Virus record (IMG/VR): IMGVR_UViG_3300005529_000051
Span: 1-48,870 of that record
Length of the DNA stretch: 48,870 nucleotides
Strand: one strand, 5' to 3'
DNA from: a virus
Numbering within the stretch: the stretch's first letter is position 1; every line of letters begins with the position of its first letter. The position numbers and the translations under genes are program-made. The notes beneath the pieces are model-generated. The model saw only the letters and a program-made list of their open reading frames with translations, was not told the DNA's origin and did not search any database. Positions 1 to 47,449 of this stretch are shown here, piece after piece.

Positions 1-120
1 GCAAGCTGGGGAGCCCATCGGCGAGGCGGCTTCGCTCGTCATATACAAGGACGCCAAGGGCCGGTTGTGGGCGCGCCCAGAAGTCGAATTTGATGATGGC
101 CGGTTCGAACCGCTCGCCGC
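1..120. repeat. Terminal direct repeat, copy 1 (circular contig overlap)
   Basis: Bases 1-120 are identical to 48751-48870. The reading frame of the gene entering from the right end continues unbroken through the join, so this is best read as the overlap of a circular or circularly permuted assembly and not as a biological terminal repeat. The unique genome is then 48750 bp. Confidence 0.95.
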
Positions 121-184
121 CTCTCCCACCGCCCAGGAAGCCCAAGCCGCGCCAGAGCCGGGTCCGTCGGAAGATCAGCAATGA
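1..184 (+). CDS. C-terminal part of the junction-spanning hypothetical protein
   Basis: This is the end of the gene that starts at 48026. The frame enters from the junction and stops at TGA 182-184. It overlaps the next start by ATGA (181-184), the same coupling used throughout this operon. The segment carries the conserved end of the small C-terminal domain (WARPEVEFDDGRFEPL) followed by a proline/alanine-rich tail. Read linearly it looks like a 5'-truncated gene, but on the circle it is complete. Confidence 0.75.
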   Translation, partial: QAGEPIGEAASLVIYKDAKGRLWARPEVEFDDGRFEPLAASPTAQEAQAAPEPGPSEDQQ

Positions 185-477
185 CGCCGAGGATCGAGAA
201 TCCGACCGCCTTTGAAGTCGAAATGAACCTCGCCGAGCGTGAGGTCATGCTCATGCTACAGGCGCGGTGCAAGGCGGCGCCAACGACCCAAATCCAGATG
301 GCCGCCGCCACCGGCGCGCTTCACGCCGCGGCCACCACGTTCATGTGCACCAAGCATCCGGACGTTCCGATCGGCCTGATGGCCGAGGCCTTCCTCAGCG
401 TGGCGCGCGACATCATCGCCCAGGTTTCCGAGGCGGCCGAGGCGATCGGCATGCAAGCCCGCGGTGGCCGCGCCTGA
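181..477 (+). CDS. Hypothetical phage protein, 98 aa
   Basis: The ATG at 181 overlaps the stop of the upstream gene, and its own TGA (475-477) overlaps the ATG of the excisionase-like gene. This places it firmly in the rightward operon that ends in the integrase. The product is a soluble-looking, mostly helical 98-residue protein with alanine- and methionine-rich segments and one Cys-containing stretch near residue 55. I recognise no domain. Its position directly before the recombination genes is typical of accessory early genes, but that does not assign a role. Confidence 0.7.
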   Translation: MTPRIENPTAFEVEMNLAEREVMLMLQARCKAAPTTQIQMAAATGALHAAATTFMCTKHPDVPIGLMAEAFLSVARDIIAQVSEAAEAIGMQARGGRA

Positions 478-737
478 TGACGGGCGTGACGCCACGCCTA
501 CTGACCGACGCCGAGGCGGCCGCCTATCTCAGCCTGCCGAAGGCCGCGCTGGCGCGCGTCCCGATCGGTCGGGTGAGCATCGCCGGCCGGATCCGCTGGG
601 ATCGGGTGGCGCTCGATGCTTGGCTTGACGGACTGCGCGGTGTGGTGAGCGTAGTGTCGCCAGCCAACAAGAGCGACGCCGATGCCGCCTTCGACCAATG
701 GGCCCAGGACGCGGGACGTGCTGCCCGGTCTGCATAA
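477..737 (+). CDS. Excisionase-like MerR/AlpA-type DNA-binding protein
   Basis: This small protein (86 aa, ATG at 477) has a helix-turn-helix of the excisionase/AlpA class: LLTDAEAAAYLSLPKAAL is followed by a basic wing (GRIRWDRVALDAWLD). Such proteins bend attachment-site DNA and set the direction of tyrosine integrases. The fold and the position immediately upstream of, and overlapping, the integrase support a role as recombination directionality factor. The start is fixed by the TGATG overlap with the previous gene. Alternatively it could be only a transcriptional regulator. Excision activity is inferred from context. Confidence 0.75.
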   Translation: MTGVTPRLLTDAEAAAYLSLPKAALARVPIGRVSIAGRIRWDRVALDAWLDGLRGVVSVVSPANKSDADAAFDQWAQDAGRAARSA

Positions 738-1770
738 AGTCCGCCCCAAGCTCGCCGGCGGCATGCTCGGCGAATACTGGTACGCATGGCGCGGCGGCCC
801 GCGGATCCTGGCCGCGCGAGGGGCTACCGAACGCGAGCTCGAGCGCGAGGTCGGGCGCCTCACCCAACAAGCGGTGCTGTCGTATCGGGCGGTCATGCAG
901 CCCAGCCACGCCGCCGACTTTCTCACCGGCCTGATCGGCCGATACCTCGAGAGCGGCGAGTTCAAGAAACTCGGGCCACGCCGGCAGTCGGACCTCACCA
1001 AAGCCCTTGACATCGCCAAGGTCGACGACATCGGCCTGATGCCCGTCAAGGCGCTGGAATCCCCCAAGGCTCGCAAGGCGCTGATCGACTGGCGCGACCG
1101 CTACAAGGCCACACCCTGCACCGCCGACGCGCGCCTGGGCGCGGTGGCCGCGGTCACCAAATGGGCGCTCGAGCGCGGCGAGATCAGCGTCAACCCCCTG
1201 GTCAGCTGGCCGCGGATCTACGCCAGCAATCGCGCCGACAAGATCTGGACGCCGGCGGAGCTGGCGCAGCTGCTGCCCAAATGCAAGCCCGACTTCGCCC
1301 TGGCGGTCCGCTTCGCCGCGCTGACCGCGCTGCGCGTGGGCGACCTGGTGAAGATCCCTGTCTCGGCGATCGGCGAGGACGCCATCGTCTGGCACACCGG
1401 CAAGAGCCGCGGCCGAAAGACCATCGTCATCCCGATCACCGACGAGCTGCGCACGCTGATCGCAGAGCTGCCCAAGCATGAGGTCGGCGCCGCCCTCACC
1501 CACAGCCGCGGGAGCCCGTGGACCGTGGCGGGGCTGCAGACGGCAATGCAGCGCGCTAAGCGCGACGCGGCCATTAAAGGGCTTACGTTCCACGATCTGC
1601 GCGGAACGGGCGCCACGCGGCTCGCGGTGGCCGGTATGCCGCTCGAGGACATCTCCTGGATCCTCGGGTGGAAGAAGGAGCGCGTCGAGCAGATCATCGT
1701 CCGCTACGTCACCGGCGAGGCGATCGGCCGCGGCATGGTCGCGCGCCTCGCCGGTCGGCGGAAGGGCTGA
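682..1770 (+). CDS. Phage integrase (tyrosine recombinase)
   Basis: This 362-residue site-specific recombinase would integrate and excise the phage at the host attachment site. The catalytic set is visible: Arg218 (ALRVGD), His304 and Arg307 in the HxxR box (HDLR), Trp330 in the place of the second His, and nucleophile Tyr342 (VRYVTG). An N-terminal SAM-like core-binding region (about 80-190) precedes the catalytic domain. Length is normal for the family. The ATG at 682 overlaps the upstream gene by 56 bp. An in-frame GTG at 718 is an alternative start. The attP-like region with repeated TGTAAAA sites lies directly downstream, the usual int-attP arrangement. Confidence 0.95.
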   Translation: MPPSTNGPRTRDVLPGLHKVRPKLAGGMLGEYWYAWRGGPRILAARGATERELEREVGRLTQQAVLSYRAVMQPSHAADFLTGLIGRYLESGEFKKLGPRRQSDLTKALDIAKVDDIGLMPVKALESPKARKALIDWRDRYKATPCTADARLGAVAAVTKWALERGEISVNPLVSWPRIYASNRADKIWTPAELAQLLPKCKPDFALAVRFAALTALRVGDLVKIPVSAIGEDAIVWHTGKSRGRKTIVIPITDELRTLIAELPKHEVGAALTHSRGSPWTVAGLQTAMQRAKRDAAIKGLTFHDLRGTGATRLAVAGMPLEDISWILGWKKERVEQIIVRYVTGEAIGRGMVARLAGRRKG

Positions 1771-1805
1771 TCGGCCCCGTTTGGGAGAACGAAACCGGCT
1801 CCAGT

Positions 1806-1999
1806 TGTAAAATGGCCTGTAAAATGGCTTCGAATCTGGAGCTCAAAAGGCTAGGAAACCCAAGCAGGCCCGGTAGCTCAGCAGGATAGAGCAGCGCTTT
1901 CCTAAAGCGGTGCTAATTCAATAAAATCAACGGTCTGGGTGTAAAATGAGCCGTGAACGTCCGCCGAACTGAACTCGAACAAACGGGCACAGTGTAAAA
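1806..1999. repeat. TGTAAAA arm-type repeats flanking the attP core
   Basis: TGTAAAATGGC occurs at 1806-1816 and again at 1818-1828. TGTAAAATGAGC is at 1940-1951 and TGTAAAAG at 1993-2000. All four are in the same orientation, two on each side of the tRNA-like core. Direct arm repeats on both sides of a core, next to int, are the organisation expected for integrase arm-binding sites. Assignment to integrase binding is inference. Confidence 0.65.
1867..1909 (+). other. attP core: 5' half of a tRNA-Arg(CCU) gene
   Basis: The segment folds as the first 42-43 positions of a tRNA: 5' acceptor strand, TA at positions 8-9, a GCTC/GAGC D stem (1876-1879 and 1889-1892), the anticodon stem GCGCT, and loop TTCCTAA with anticodon CCT at 1901-1903. 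After AGCG the match breaks: the base that should close the stem is G, and no T arm or acceptor 3' strand follows. It is therefore a tRNA fragment and not a tRNA gene. It lies between the integrase and hicA, flanked by TGTAAAA repeats, which marks it as the likely attachment core. Confidence 0.75.
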
Positions 2000-2041
2000 G
2001 ATTTTCGACCCAAATCAGCGCCCTGGGGCGTTCGAATTTTC

Positions 2042-2089
2042 CGGACACTTTTGTCCGTTTTTCGATTGAATATCGGACAAAAGTGTCCG
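2042..2089. promoter_or_regulatory. Paired 16-bp operator-like palindromes upstream of hicA
   Basis: Bases 2042-2057 (CGGACACTTTTGTCCG) and 2074-2089 (CGGACAAAAGTGTCCG) are exact reverse complements, and each is itself a near-palindrome with CGGACA/TGTCCG arms. The second ends 12 bp before the hicA ATG. HicB antitoxins with a C-terminal helix-turn-helix repress their own operon through such palindromes, so these are the likely HicB operators. The pair could also form a long RNA hairpin. Confidence 0.7.
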
Positions 2090-2101
2090 ATAATTTCTTT
2101 C

Positions 2102-2308
2102 ATGAACGGGAAAGAATTCATTCGGAAAGCCCGCAAGTGGGCCAAGGCCAATGACCGGGAATTCGCGGTCAACGCCAGCCGCGGCAAAGGCGGCCACAAG
2201 ATGGTCCAAGTCGGCGACCGCCGCACCACGGTGAAGACTGGCGAGATCGGGACAGGCCTTCTTGCCGCCATGCTGGAACAGCTGAACATACCGAAAGGGG
2301 AATTCTAA
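2102..2308 (+). CDS. hicA: HicA-family mRNA interferase toxin
   Basis: The 68-residue product matches the HicA fold (double-stranded-RNA-binding-like): NGKEFIRKARKWAK at the start, then GKGGHKMVQVGDRRTTVK, where the histidine is the expected catalytic residue, and a LEQLNI end. HicA toxins cleave mRNA and tmRNA and are held inactive by HicB. The ATG at 2102 is chosen over an upstream in-frame start at 2051 because the earlier start would place the operator palindromes inside the gene. The gene is followed 90 bp later by hicB. Between int/attP and the late genes, it may stabilise the prophage or defend it against other phages. That role is inferred. Confidence 0.85.
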   Translation: MNGKEFIRKARKWAKANDREFAVNASRGKGGHKMVQVGDRRTTVKTGEIGTGLLAAMLEQLNIPKGEF

Positions 2309-2309
2309 G

Positions 2310-2386
2310 GCGGGGTCAGGAGGGCCCCGCACCTGGCCGGAGGAGCCCCGGTCACGTAAGGAAGAAGGAGGCCGCCGAAGGCGGCC
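2310..2386 (+). promoter_or_regulatory. Two RNA hairpins in the hicA-hicB spacer
   Basis: GCGGGG (2310-2315) pairs with CCCCGC (2325-2330) across a 9-base loop, and GGCCGCC (2370-2376) pairs with GGCGGCC (2380-2386) across a GAA loop. The second hairpin overlaps the end of a strong AAGGAGG sequence at 2365-2371 and sits 12 bases before the hicB start. They could influence the toxin:antitoxin ratio by attenuation or by masking the ribosome site. Neither has a U-tract, so simple termination is unlikely. Confidence 0.5.
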
Positions 2387-2398
2387 GATGTAACAAGG

Positions 2399-2848
2399 AT
2401 GCTAACCTGGAGCTACCCGGCGGTTTTCGACCGCCACGACGATGGCGAGATCATCGTCCGATTCCCGGACCTCCCAGAGGTCCTGACCAGCGGCGCCACT
2501 GAGCAAGAGGCCCGCACCAACGCCGAGGACGCCCTCGAGGAGGCGGTCCTGGCCTACCTAGCCGACGATCGACCCGTGCCGGCGCCGCGCGAGCCAAGAG
2601 CGGGCGAAACGGCAGTCGATCTGCCGCTCTTAACCGCCGCCCGCGCGGCCGTGGCGGCCGCCATGGCCGCGCAGCACGTCAACAAGATGCGCCTCGCCAG
2701 TCTCATGCACCGCGACGAAAAGGTCGTGCGCCGAATCCTAGACGGCAAGGGCAACGTCAAAATCGACAATGTGTCGGCGGCCCTGCGCGTACTGGGAGTG
2801 GAAGCGCGCCTGGTCATCGAGCCCGCACACCGCGCGCCAGCCCAATAA
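2399..2848 (+). CDS. hicB: HicB-family antitoxin with C-terminal helix-turn-helix
   Basis: This 149-residue antitoxin has two parts. Residues 1-55 form the partial RNase H-like HicB fold (SYPAVFDRHDDGEIIVRFPDLPEVLTSG, then EEAxxNAEDALEEAVLAYL). Residues ~75-140 form a DNA-binding helix-turn-helix (RLASLMHRDEKVVRRILDGKGNVKIDNVSAALRVLG is the recognition region). It should bind and neutralise HicA and repress the operon at the palindromes 2042-2089. The gene is on the same strand and downstream of hicA, the common order. Its end abuts the minus-strand late terminator, so the two transcription units converge here. Confidence 0.9.
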   Translation: MLTWSYPAVFDRHDDGEIIVRFPDLPEVLTSGATEQEARTNAEDALEEAVLAYLADDRPVPAPREPRAGETAVDLPLLTAARAAVAAAMAAQHVNKMRLASLMHRDEKVVRRILDGKGNVKIDNVSAALRVLGVEARLVIEPAHRAPAQ

Positions 2849-2880
2849 AAAAACCCCCCCGCCGGGCGTGGCGAGGGGGC
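2847..2880 (-). terminator. Rho-independent terminator of the late leftward operon
   Basis: Read on the minus strand, a GC hairpin (CCCCCTCGCC pairing with GGCGGGGGG around a short loop, plus-strand 2854-2862 and 2870-2879) is followed directly by seven U residues (A-tract at 2847-2853). It lies just beyond the last leftward gene (stop at 2914) and at the end of hicB. On the plus strand no U-tract follows the hairpin, so it is primarily a terminator for the minus-strand transcript. Confidence 0.85.
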
Positions 2881-2913
2881 CAGGGTGCCGCGCAAGGGAG
2901 GAAAGCGCGGGGT

Positions 2914-3300
2914 TCAGGAAGGCGGCTTGCGCGTACGTGGCGGACGAACCTCGTAGATCTTGCCAGTTCGACCAGATGCCAGGTTGTTGATCTGGCCACC
3001 CATGTTGTCCAAGCAATCGCGAATATGGGTTAGGCGCTCATCGATACCGGCATAGCGACGGTCGCAGTCGCGAACATGGCTGCGATGCTCGCTTTCGGTG
3101 ATCAACGCTCGATCGTGCGTTTCGCCGGCGTCCTTCTCAAGACTGCCGATCCGCGCCTCGGCTCGCTTCACTTTGTCGGCGAGGCCCTCGTCAGTCGTCT
3201 CGCTTTTCCCCTCGCGCGTGCCGCGCAAGTAAAGGAACACCCCGATCGTGGTTGCGACCTGAACTATTGCGCAGCCAGCGCTTACCGCACCTGAATCCAT
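2914..3300 (-). CDS. Membrane-anchored coiled-coil phage protein (DUF2730-like)
   Basis: This 128-residue protein has one N-terminal membrane helix (about residues 8-27, GCAIVQVATTIGVFLYL). A long charged coiled coil follows (residues 35-100, with LADKVKRAEARIGSLEKD heptads) and then a basic tail. The layout resembles the DUF2730 / Mu gp25-type small membrane proteins. It is the last gene of the late operon, immediately downstream of the spanin genes, and ends just before the terminator. A part in lysis is possible but not shown. Confidence 0.6.
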   Translation of the reverse strand: MDSGAVSAGCAIVQVATTIGVFLYLRGTREGKSETTDEGLADKVKRAEARIGSLEKDAGETHDRALITESEHRSHVRDCDRRYAGIDERLTHIRDCLDNMGGQINNLASGRTGKIYEVRPPRTRKPPS

Positions 3301-3333
3301 ACTCCACGCCTCCGCGACGCGACTAAATGAAGG

Positions 3334-3714
3334 CTATTTGGCCGCCGACGGCGGCATGAAGTGGTGCAGCAGGCCATCATACCAGGGCGACGGGTCGAGG
3401 GCCTTGAGGATCGCCGCCTGGCGCTGCCCACAACTATCGGCGATCGCGATCAGGTCGGCGGTGCGTCCGTTGGCCTGGTCGAGCTGCGTGGTCTGCGCGT
3501 CGAGGGCGATCAGCGCCTCGCCGGCGGTGGCGTTAGTGGAAATCAGTGGCGCCGGCGGGACCGGGCTTCGGTACGACTGGGGGATCAGGCTCGCGCAGTC
3601 GAGCGCAGCCAGGATCGGCGGCGTAAGCCGCGTGCTTACACAACCCGAGGCGAGCGGTGCGCAGCAAAGTAGGATCAAGGGCGTCCGAAGCGCCCGGGGC
3701 GTGAGCGATCGCAT
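3334..3714 (-). CDS. Rz1-like outer-membrane spanin lipoprotein
   Basis: This 126-residue secreted lipoprotein has a basic N-terminus, a hydrophobic stretch and the lipobox LASGC with lipidated Cys25. The mature part is proline-containing near its start and short, as in outer-membrane spanins. Its first 182 bp overlap the end of the upstream Rz-like gene in another frame, the diagnostic nested Rz/Rz1 arrangement. Together with Rz it would fuse inner and outer membranes at the end of lysis. The start is the ATG at 3714, inside Rz. Mature length is somewhat greater than in lambda Rz1. Confidence 0.75.
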   Translation of the reverse strand: MRSLTPRALRTPLILLCCAPLASGCVSTRLTPPILAALDCASLIPQSYRSPVPPAPLISTNATAGEALIALDAQTTQLDQANGRTADLIAIADSCGQRQAAILKALDPSPWYDGLLHHFMPPSAAK

Positions 3715-3961
3715 TCGCGTTGTCCTGGTGCAGCTGAATGTCGAGATGGTCGCGAGCCTGCCCGGAGACGATGATCTGCTGCGCGGCCGTCTGCGCCTGT
3801 GCTTGCCCCTGTCCGACGGTCGCCGCGCCGGCTTTGGCCTGCTCGGTCACCGCCAGCTTTTTGGCGCTGTGGTCCATCCACCAAAGGCCGCCGGCGATCC
3901 CAATCAGCGCCGCGGCCACGATCATGGTGAGGATGGTGGCGATGGCCTTGAGCGCGCCCAT
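3533..3961 (-). CDS. Rz-like inner-membrane spanin
   Basis: Starting at the ATG at 3961, which overlaps the previous stop, the 142-residue product has a single N-terminal membrane helix (about residues 10-30, IVAAALIGIAGGLWW). A periplasmic helical region rich in Gln/Ala (AQAQTAAQQIIVSGQ) follows, and then a conserved-looking RTARLGLCKHAAYAADPGCA segment with two cysteines. The topology, length and nesting with the lipoprotein gene at 3334-3714 identify it as the i-spanin partner. A longer frame upstream (to 4033) is not used because it lacks coupling to the neighbour. Confidence 0.75.
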   Translation of the reverse strand: MGALKAIATILTMIVAAALIGIAGGLWWMDHSAKKLAVTEQAKAGAATVGQGQAQAQTAAQQIIVSGQARDHLDIQLHQDNANAIAHAPGASDALDPTLLRTARLGLCKHAAYAADPGCARLREPDPPVVPKPGPAGATDFH

Positions 3962-4158
3962 CAGTGCAGGCCATGAAAGGCGCCGCTGAACGTGATGGCG
4001 AGAACAACCCCCGCGCCCGCTAGGACAAGCCATGCGGCCCGTTCGAAGGCTGACATCTCCGGGATGATCCGCGGCTCTAACGGCGGAAGCGGCGGCGGGG
4101 GTGGCCGCCTCACAAAGCGTCCGGTCTTAGGATCCTGCGGCTGCACGGTAACCTCCAT
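3961..4158 (-). CDS. Small single-span membrane protein, 65 aa
   Basis: The product has a basic, proline-rich N-terminal part (VRRPPPPPLPPLEPR), one hydrophobic helix (about residues 42-60, AAWLVLAGAGVVLAITFSG) and a short end. Its stop overlaps the start of the Rz-like gene. It sits in the lysis region, so an accessory lysis role is possible. One short membrane span and a cytoplasmic proline run do not match a known holin class. I do not recognise the family. Confidence 0.6.
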   Translation of the reverse strand: MEVTVQPQDPKTGRFVRRPPPPPLPPLEPRIIPEMSAFERAAWLVLAGAGVVLAITFSGAFHGLH

Positions 4159-45639: not shown

Positions 45640-45839
45640 GCGACACGGTCACCCTCACCCTCTCCGCGATCGAGGCCGAGGGCCTCGCCGCCCTGGCGCG
45701 CGAAGGCCACGCGGTGCTCGATCTGCCAGGGGCCGGACTGCTCAAGGGGCTGACCACGCCGAGCCGCCGGCGGGCGGCGGTCAGCGCCTTTCGACGACTT
45801 CAAGACGCACTCACGCCAACCAAGGAGGCCTGTGCATGA
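45636..45839 (+). CDS. Hypothetical small protein before the ParB-like gene, 67 aa
   Basis: GTG 45636 overlaps the previous stop and the TGA at 45837-45839 overlaps the ParB-like ATG. The 67-residue product (VSDTVTLTLSAIEAEGLAALA start, LKGLTTPSRRRAAVSAFRRLQDAL end) has a strand and two helices with a basic second helix. It may be a partner or regulator of the ParB-like protein, an inference only from coupling. No family recognised. Confidence 0.55.
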   Translation: MSDTVTLTLSAIEAEGLAALAREGHAVLDLPGAGLLKGLTTPSRRRAAVSAFRRLQDALTPTKEACA

Positions 45840-47449
45840 CGACCCTAACCTCGTTCACGATCGCCTACGCGCCGCTGTTGCGCCATCTGACGAGCCACGC
45901 TTATCCCGAGGGCGAAAGCTTCGCCCAGGACCTCAACGCGGTCGCCAAGGCCGTCGGCAAGGTGCCGTCGAACCTGCGCCGCGACCTCCCCAGGCTGCGC
46001 GAGGCCGGGCTGCTGGAGGCCAAGGGCCTGATCCTCACCGCCGCCGGCAGCGCCGCCCTGACCGCCATCGATGGTGCCCCCCCCCAAACCGCCGCCGGTG
46101 CCGAACCGGGATTGTTGCACGCCCAAATCGCGCCGGATCCCCACAATCCCCGCACCGTGTTCGACGAAGACGCGATCGAGGAACTGGCGGCGTCAATCCA
46201 TGAGCATGGCCTGATCCAGGGCCTGACGGTGCGACCGGCCGACGCCAGCGGCTTCCACCGACTGGTCGCCGGCGAGCGCCGCTGGCGCGCGATCGGCCTT
46301 CTGATCGCCCGCGGCGACTGGCCGGCCGATCAACCGATCCGGACCTCGATCGTCGACGTCGACGACGGTCAGGCCGCCCTGCTGGCGCTGATTGAGAACC
46401 TGCAGCGCGAGGACCTCAACCCGATGGAGGAAGCGCGCGCCTTCAACGTGCTGCGCACCGACCACGCCCTATCCACGGCCGACATCGCCGCGAAGATCGG
46501 CAAGAGCCAGCGCCACGTCCAGGACAGGCTGAGCTTCCTGAAGCTGGATGAGCAGGATCAGCAGAACGTGGCCGAAGGCCGCTACAACATCGAGCAGGCC
46601 CGGAATCTCGCCTCCCGCGCCACTATTGCGGCCGCAGAGGAGGTCGAGCTCAGCGACGACGTGCTGTTCGTGATGGCCGAGCTCGCCCACCGCTGGAAAT
46701 ACCTGCCCAAGCGCAAGGACTCATATTGGCAGGAAACCGAGATCCGGCATGGCGTGAAGGACCCGATCCTACTCCAGCTGCGCAGCCTGGGATTTGTCGA
46801 CGTGTTCACCGAAGCCTTTAACAGCGAGCGCACCTATGCGCGGCGCGGCCACAAATGGCCACACAAACGGGAACTGCCGCAGATCCCAGAAGGAACCGCG
46901 ATCTACCGCACGGCCTGGCTCAACGGACCGTTCCCGATCCCGAAAGAGGGCCTCAAACGGCTCGAGGACAAGAAACGACGGTCGGCCGAGACGCGTGACG
47001 CCAACAAGACCGCCAAGGCCAAAGCCGAGCAGCTGGCGGCGGAGGTTGACGCGCTGGTGGCCAAACCGATCGGGGCGGCCACGGCGGAGGAATTCGCGCA
47101 ACTCATGAAGCGCGCGGGTAGCGGCTGGCCTTGGAACCTCACCAAAGACGGCGCCCAGGCCCAGGGCCTCGACTATGGGGTGGGGGTGAACCTCTACGGG
47201 CTCAACCGCTCGCTGGTGCGCCTGCTGGTGTTCGCGGTCAACGCCGCCGGCGCGACGCCCGGCGACCAGGTCGCTCTAAGGTCGGCCAAGGTCGACGATG
47301 ATCTGGAAGTCGCCGAGCCGGATGCACTCGACGCCTGGGCTGCTCGAGCCCCGAACAATCCAGAACAGACCGAGCTCGAGGACGCGATCGCCCACGCGCC
47401 GGCCAGCTTCGCCGACCAGGTCCGCCAGTCGGCTGAGGAGCTCACCTAA
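45836..47449 (+). CDS. Orphan ParB/RepB-like protein
   Basis: The 537-residue protein has an N-terminal winged-helix-like segment (1-80, FAQDLNAVAKAVGKVPSNLRRDLPRLREAGLL) and a linker containing a nine-C run. A ParB N-terminal domain follows, with the CTP-binding motif GERRWRA (146-152) and ENLQREDLNPMEEA (187-200), then a KorB-type helix-turn-helix (212-236, LSTADIAAKIGKSQRHVQDRL), and finally a long C-terminal extension (250-537) unlike chromosomal ParB. No ParA gene is present in the genome. It may regulate transcription or bind parS-like sites. Partition is not implied without ParA. Confidence 0.85.
   Translation: MTTLTSFTIAYAPLLRHLTSHAYPEGESFAQDLNAVAKAVGKVPSNLRRDLPRLREAGLLEAKGLILTAAGSAALTAIDGAPPQTAAGAEPGLLHAQIAPDPHNPRTVFDEDAIEELAASIHEHGLIQGLTVRPADASGFHRLVAGERRWRAIGLLIARGDWPADQPIRTSIVDVDDGQAALLALIENLQREDLNPMEEARAFNVLRTDHALSTADIAAKIGKSQRHVQDRLSFLKLDEQDQQNVAEGRYNIEQARNLASRATIAAAEEVELSDDVLFVMAELAHRWKYLPKRKDSYWQETEIRHGVKDPILLQLRSLGFVDVFTEAFNSERTYARRGHKWPHKRELPQIPEGTAIYRTAWLNGPFPIPKEGLKRLEDKKRRSAETRDANKTAKAKAEQLAAEVDALVAKPIGAATAEEFAQLMKRAGSGWPWNLTKDGAQAQGLDYGVGVNLYGLNRSLVRLLVFAVNAAGATPGDQVALRSAKVDDDLEVAEPDALDAWAARAPNNPEQTELEDAIAHAPASFADQVRQSAEELT

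What the first reader, a model, noticed from the sequence alone, without database searches (positions are those of the whole stretch)
1806..1999. attP carries the 5' half of a tRNA-Arg(CCU), flanked by TGTAAAA repeats
Most tRNA-targeting phages carry the 3' end of the tRNA so that the host gene is repaired with its own promoter. Here the fragment runs from the acceptor 5' strand to the anticodon stem. After integration the complete tRNA would consist of the phage 5' half and the host 3' half, lying next to int, and would need a phage-supplied promoter. The four arm-like repeats (two per side) support an attP.
Basis: partly seen in the sequence, partly recalled or inferred. Interest (0 to 1): 0.6.

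Follow-up and report, generated by a model that had tools for sequence, protein, structure and literature searches.

The report
Phage attP carrying a tRNA's 5' half
This phage's integration site carries the front half of a host tRNA-Arg gene instead of the usual back half; lysogens of relatives show that the host tRNA is then rebuilt from a phage front half and a host back half, cut off from its own promoter, a rare known arrangement that this integrase family has switched into more than once.

Summary
Confirmed. Window 1867-1909 is identical to the first 43 nt of tRNA-Arg(CCT) of Caulobacterales. The window (120-bp terminal repeats, so probably complete) holds exactly four TGTAAAA, at 1806, 1818, 1940 and 1993, around this fragment and just downstream of a tyrosine integrase gene (682-1770). 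No 3' tRNA half lies elsewhere in it.

No lysogen of this phage was found, but relatives show the predicted junctions. In two Caulobacteraceae genomes, int is followed by a complete hybrid tRNA-Thr(TGT), and the host's promoter-bearing 5' half sits at the other junction. A third genome does this at tRNA-Gly(CCC) with an inverted att cassette. Other family members capture the normal 3' half. In both kinds the P' arm sites mostly lie +38 and +91 nt from the anticodon-loop centre: same recombination site, tRNA flipped. The tree needs at least four 5'/3' switches, two of them forced by well-supported branches.

5'-half capture in itself is known but rare (159 of 3,919 islands in Islander). The phage-supplied promoter is only suggestive: its score collapses when cognate tRNA-Arg promoters are left out of the model. 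Verdict: real, mechanism well supported, moderate novelty.

The parts
477..737 (+). small helix-turn-helix protein, possible excisionase
   Evidence: weak matches to phrog_66 (excisionase and regulator, E 2.7e-4) and HTH_17 (below cut-off)
682..1770 (+). tyrosine integrase (362 aa)
   Evidence: Pfam PF00589 E 1.9e-15, phrog_1 integrase E 7e-35
1806..1812 (+). P arm site 1, TGTAAAA
   Evidence: one of only four copies in the window; tandem pair at the same side in relatives
1818..1824 (+). P arm site 2, TGTAAAA
1828..1857 (+). candidate promoter CTTCGAAT-N14-GCTAGGAA for the rebuilt tRNA
   Evidence: score 11.8 with a model of 83 host tRNA promoters, but 6.07 and p 0.054 when cognate tRNA-Arg(CCT) promoters are left out: suggestive only
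1867..1909 (+). 5' half of tRNA-Arg(CCT), nt 1-43
   Evidence: 100% identity to host genes
1899..1905 (+). anticodon loop TTCCTAA, inferred strand-exchange overlap
   Evidence: minimum identity shared by 5'-half and 3'-half members of the family
1925..1937 (+). IHF-like sequence AATCAACGGTCTG
   Evidence: 8 of 9 consensus positions at +23, a position shared with relatives
1940..1946 (+). P' arm site 1, TGTAAAA (+38 from loop centre)
1993..1999 (+). P' arm site 2, TGTAAAA (+91 from loop centre)
2034..2097 (.). two inverted copies of a GGACA-TGTCC palindrome, terminator-like; bounds the attP and may be an operator

Best explanation
The region is the attP of a temperate phage of a Caulobacter-like host. 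A lambda-type tyrosine integrase binds two arm repeats on each side and exchanges strands in the anticodon loop of tRNA-Arg(CCT). [quoted passage not shown] Integration therefore joins the phage 5' half to the host 3' half, restoring a complete tRNA just downstream of int, and leaves the host promoter plus host 5' half at the other junction, followed by phage DNA. The tRNA must then be transcribed from the phage side (a promoter between the P arms and the tRNA, or read-through from int). The 5' polarity arose by flipping the tRNA relative to a fixed attP architecture, which the near-palindromic anticodon stem-loop permits. Shown: the fragment, the arm repeats, the junctions in relatives, the conserved geometry. 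Inferred: the exact crossover, the host of this phage, the transcription step, and the flip as the cause.
For: Exact 43-nt match; four arm repeats confined to the site; both junctions read in L003, L154 and, with an inverted cassette, L051; hybrid reads as a tRNA; P' arms at +38/+91 in both 5'-half and 3'-half members; identity limits meet at the anticodon loop; host-type promoters remain at the displaced ends.
Against: No lysogen of this phage itself was found, so the window's own junctions are inferred from relatives with integrases about 50% identical. L003 is a MAG, and the two L154 junctions are 355 kb apart on opposite strands, which needs a rearrangement or misassembly. Promoter evidence is weak.
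Confidence: 0.88

Rival explanations
1. The junction works as described, but the rebuilt tRNA has no promoter of its own: it is transcribed by read-through from int.
For: int ends 96 bp upstream on the same strand with no terminator-like site between; L003, L005-L007, L017, L018 and L178 lack a promoter match; the archaeal pTN3 tRNA is said to be expressed from the integrase promoter (PMC8371274).
Against: In L051 and L020-L022 the att cassette is inverted, so int cannot read into the tRNA; a promoter-like pair with host spacing is present in the window.
Confidence: 0.35
2. tRNA-dependent lysogeny: the host tRNA is disrupted and not rebuilt, and a phage-encoded tRNA makes up for it.
For: Such phages exist among actinobacteriophages (PMC10865867).
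Against: The window encodes no tRNA, the shared core is 43 nt rather than about 10 bp, and relatives do rebuild the tRNA.
Confidence: 0.02
3. The tRNA piece is a decayed remnant (for example from a past imprecise excision) and the working attP lies elsewhere.
For: tRNA fragments are common in mobile elements (general knowledge).
Against: Perfect 43-nt identity, symmetric arm repeats found nowhere else in the window, and the same layout at the same distances in many relatives.
Confidence: 0.03

Closest known systems
Genomic islands with 5' tDNA fragments in the Islander database (PMC4383910)
   Same: The element carries the tRNA 5' part and the displaced host fragment is the 5' one; 159 such islands against 3,760 with 3' fragments
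   Different: Listed there only as counts, as far as I read; here one phage integrase family is shown to use both polarities with the same arm geometry
Archaeal pTN3-like integrases (PMC8371274, PMC5495485)
   Same: attB in the tRNA 5' half; rebuilt tRNA separated from its own promoter
   Different: pTN3 attP lies inside the integrase gene, which integration disrupts; here attP lies downstream of an intact int
RHph_Y1_20-type Rhizobium phage integrases and convergent Caulobacterales prophages
   Same: Related integrase (about 34% identity), tandem TGTAAAA arms after int, tRNA target
   Different: They carry the 3' half, with the tRNA convergent with int
Lambda-type attP
   Same: Arm sites on both sides of a core with IHF-like sites between
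   Different: Core is a tRNA anticodon loop with long one-sided homology; arm sequence and spacing differ
tRNA-dependent lysogeny phages (PMC10865867)
   Same: The lysogen depends on phage DNA for a host tRNA function
   Different: There a whole phage tRNA is supplied and the host gene stays broken; here half a gene is supplied and the gene is rebuilt

Membership tests
tRNA-targeting tyrosine-integrase attP (lambda type) | tyrosine integrase gene next to the site | tested here: met
   PF00589 and phrog_1
tRNA-targeting tyrosine-integrase attP (lambda type) | arm repeats on both sides of the core | tested here: met
   four TGTAAAA, two per side, none elsewhere; conserved positions
tRNA-targeting tyrosine-integrase attP (lambda type) | core identical to a host tRNA gene | tested here: met
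   43 nt, 100%
tRNA-targeting tyrosine-integrase attP (lambda type) | IHF-type bending sites between core and arms | tested here: inconclusive
   positions recur, but only some are better than shuffles
tRNA-targeting tyrosine-integrase attP (lambda type) | recombination activity of Int on this site | not testable with these tools
   needs a bench assay
5'-fragment tRNA islands | displaced host fragment is the 5' part; complete tRNA at the other end | tested here: met
   in relatives L003, L154, L051; not read for this phage, since no lysogen was found
Usual 3'-half tRNA attP | phage carries the tRNA 3' half | tested here: not met
   no 3' half in the window
pTN3-like integrases | attP inside the integrase gene, int split on integration | tested here: not met
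   attP starts after the int stop codon
tRNA-dependent lysogeny | phage-encoded complete tRNA and a short core | tested here: not met
   no tRNA gene, 43-nt core

The most novel reading that the evidence does not exclude
The integrase complex is indifferent to tRNA polarity: with one fixed arm geometry it can capture either half of a tRNA by using the near-palindromic anticodon stem-loop in either orientation. Phages that flip it put a host tRNA under phage transcriptional control, so the lysogen depends on the prophage for that tRNA, while the displaced host tRNA promoter now points into the phage genome.
Probability: 0.3. Interest if true: 0.65.

Novelty: new variant of a known kind. Interest (0 to 1): 0.48.

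Why it matters
tRNA-integrating elements are usually said to carry the 3' half so that the host promoter keeps driving the tRNA. This family breaks that rule repeatedly while keeping the same recombination architecture, which is a natural experiment on why 3' capture is usual (promoter retention rather than recombination chemistry). It makes the question of who transcribes a tRNA rebuilt from a phage 5' half directly testable. It also warns prophage-boundary tools that look only for 3' fragments.

Tried and rejected
DNA-level search of phage records with window 1-4000: no match. Search for a lysogen of this phage itself: none among 398 Caulobacterales and 390 Caulobacteraceae genomes (the sets overlap); the closest integrases are about 50% identical. 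Phage promoter: an initially strong score did not survive leaving out cognate tRNA-Arg(CCT) promoters, so it was downgraded. IHF sites tested against shuffles: better than chance for some attPs only. Read-through of the displaced host promoter into the hicAB-like genes is not claimed, because a terminator-like palindrome lies between. Literature: Williams 2002 (PMC100330) is not held and is cited only through the review PMC8371274; the paper search does not take the prime sign, so searches for 5'-half cases were poor.

Full report
Observation. Window 1867-1909 is identical over 43 nt to the 5' end of tRNA-Arg(CCT) genes of Caulobacterales genomes and diverges at nt 44. The window is an IMG/VR virus record with 120-bp direct terminal repeats, so it is probably a complete genome; the repeats are not at the att site. 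TGTAAAA occurs four times in the window (1806, 1818, 1940, 1993), all on the + strand and all around the fragment; 0 of 100 shuffles reach four. int (682-1770) is a Phage_integrase protein. There is no tRNA gene in the phage and no credible 3' tRNA half elsewhere.

Junctions in relatives. Viral relatives carry the same layout: int, two arm repeats, a tRNA 5' half on the same strand, two more arm repeats. The targets are tRNA-Arg(CCT) (L005, L007) or tRNA-Thr(TGT) (L004, L006, L017, L018, L178). Their integrases are 48-53% identical to the window's over most of its length (L178 is a partial match, 46% over 158 residues). In the MAG CAULO1 (L003/G001) the prophage is integrated. On the int side lies a complete tRNA-Thr(TGT); 40 kb away lies the host flank (a folD-like gene, named by eye), the host tRNA promoter and a tRNA 5' half running into phage DNA with an arm repeat. 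The two copies share an uninterrupted stretch of about 39 tRNA nt. G612 (L154) is a second case: the shared tRNA identity stops exactly at nt 38, the last base of the anticodon loop. Its two junctions lie 355 kb apart on opposite strands, so a rearrangement or misassembly is implied. G171 (L051) is a third, at tRNA-Gly(CCC): int sits next to the displaced host 5' half, and the complete hybrid tRNA with the tandem arms is at the other end, because the att cassette is inverted relative to int. The viral contigs L020-L022 have a 5' half in the same direction relative to int, which I read by eye as tRNA-Ser(GCT); the inverted arm repeats are seen in L021 and L022.

The rest of the family mostly does the usual thing. 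In most Caulobacterales lysogens with a tRNA next to int, the complete tRNA is convergent with int, and where the far end was read in nine of them it holds a 3' fragment starting in or just before the anticodon loop. The viral contig L019 carries the 3' half of tRNA-Gln and the named Rhizobium phage RHph_Y1_20 the 3' half of what I read by eye as a tRNA-Gly. tRNA-Thr(TGT) is used in the 3' way by L028 and L036 and in the 5' way by L003, L154 and others.

Geometry. Centred on the anticodon loop and read in the direction of the arm repeats, the P' arms lie at +37 to +39 and +90/+91 in 5'-half members (window, L004-L007, L017, L021, L022, L178, attL of L154 and L051; in L003 attL only the +90 arm matches the motif) and in the 3'-half members L019 and L037. 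RHph_Y1_20 departs (one P' arm found, at +102), and in L028 and L036 my motif finds no P' arm. IHF-like sequences recur at +22 to +24 and +67 to +69. So, where it could be read, the recombination site is built the same way and only the tRNA's direction differs. The identity of the 5'-half members never ends before the last loop base (exactly there in L005, L017, L154), and that of the 3'-half members checked never begins after the first loop base (exactly there in L024, L028, L052). The shared minimum is the 7-nt anticodon loop, the inferred strand-exchange overlap (window 1899-1905). The flanking anticodon stem supplies the inverted repeats that a tyrosine integrase binds, which would let the site work in either direction (inference; the general match of anticodon stem-loop and lambda core is described in PMC8371274).

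Evolution. On a 33-row integrase tree the 8 codirectional 5'-half members form one side of a branch (support 83/80). With 44 rows the Arg pair L005/L007 moves beside the 3'-half tRNA-Gln clade, and the 5'/3' label needs four changes, of which well-supported branches force two. The polarity has switched more than once; the exact number and direction are open.

Transcription. After 5'-half integration the host promoter stays with the displaced half: these upstream regions score 11.35, 9.5 and 7.57 with a matrix built from host tRNA promoters. The rebuilt tRNA must be transcribed from phage DNA. The window has CTTCGAAT-N14-GCTAGGAA nine bases before the tRNA (score 11.8, 0 of 1500 null stretches), with the spacing of host tRNA promoters. 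But the score depends on the cognate tRNA-Arg(CCT) promoters in the training set; without them it is 6.07 with p = 0.054. Most relatives show no good match. Read-through from int is possible in the window type (no terminator-like site between) but not in the inverted type. I treat the promoter as a candidate only. In CAULO1 no second tRNA-Thr(TGT) gene was found, so that hybrid is probably functional, with the caveat of MAG completeness.

Relation to known systems. 5' fragments are a known minority: 159 islands against 3,760 with 3' fragments in Islander (PMC4383910). The archaeal review states that pTN3-like integrases use the tRNA 5' half, with the tRNA then expressed from the integrase promoter, and that this is seldom met in bacteria, citing Williams 2002 (PMC8371274), a paper I could not read. 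Cossu 2017 notes that the rebuilt pTN3 tRNA is separated from its original promoter (PMC5495485). The 5' capture is thus not new in itself. What I did not find described, in a limited literature search, is one integrase family that switches polarity at fixed arm geometry. I therefore file it as a new variant of a known kind.

Noticed in passing
window 2034-2848: Next to attP: two inverted copies of a GGACA-TGTCC palindrome (2034-2097), then a small HicA-like toxin ORF (2102-2308, weak phrog_353 match) and a HicB-like antitoxin with a repressor-like C-terminus (2399-2848).
   Followed up: partly
G612:C1, L154 and L187: The two att junctions of one prophage type lie 355 kb apart on opposite strands, suggesting a chromosomal inversion through the prophage or a misassembly. 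Integrase-driven inversions between tRNA genes are described for archaeal pTN3 (PMC5495485).
   Followed up: partly
L021, L022, L025, L051: The whole att cassette is inverted relative to int, so int sits beside the displaced tRNA fragment instead of the rebuilt tRNA.
   Followed up: partly
L005, L007, L028, L040, L047, L048 downstream of int: Arm repeats diverge in parallel within each phage: TGCGAAAA, TTGCAAAC or CTCCCAACT in place of TGTAAAA, as if the arm-binding domain and its sites change together.
   Followed up: no
window 45836-47449: A 537-aa ParB-like protein in a phage that also has an integrase.
   Followed up: no
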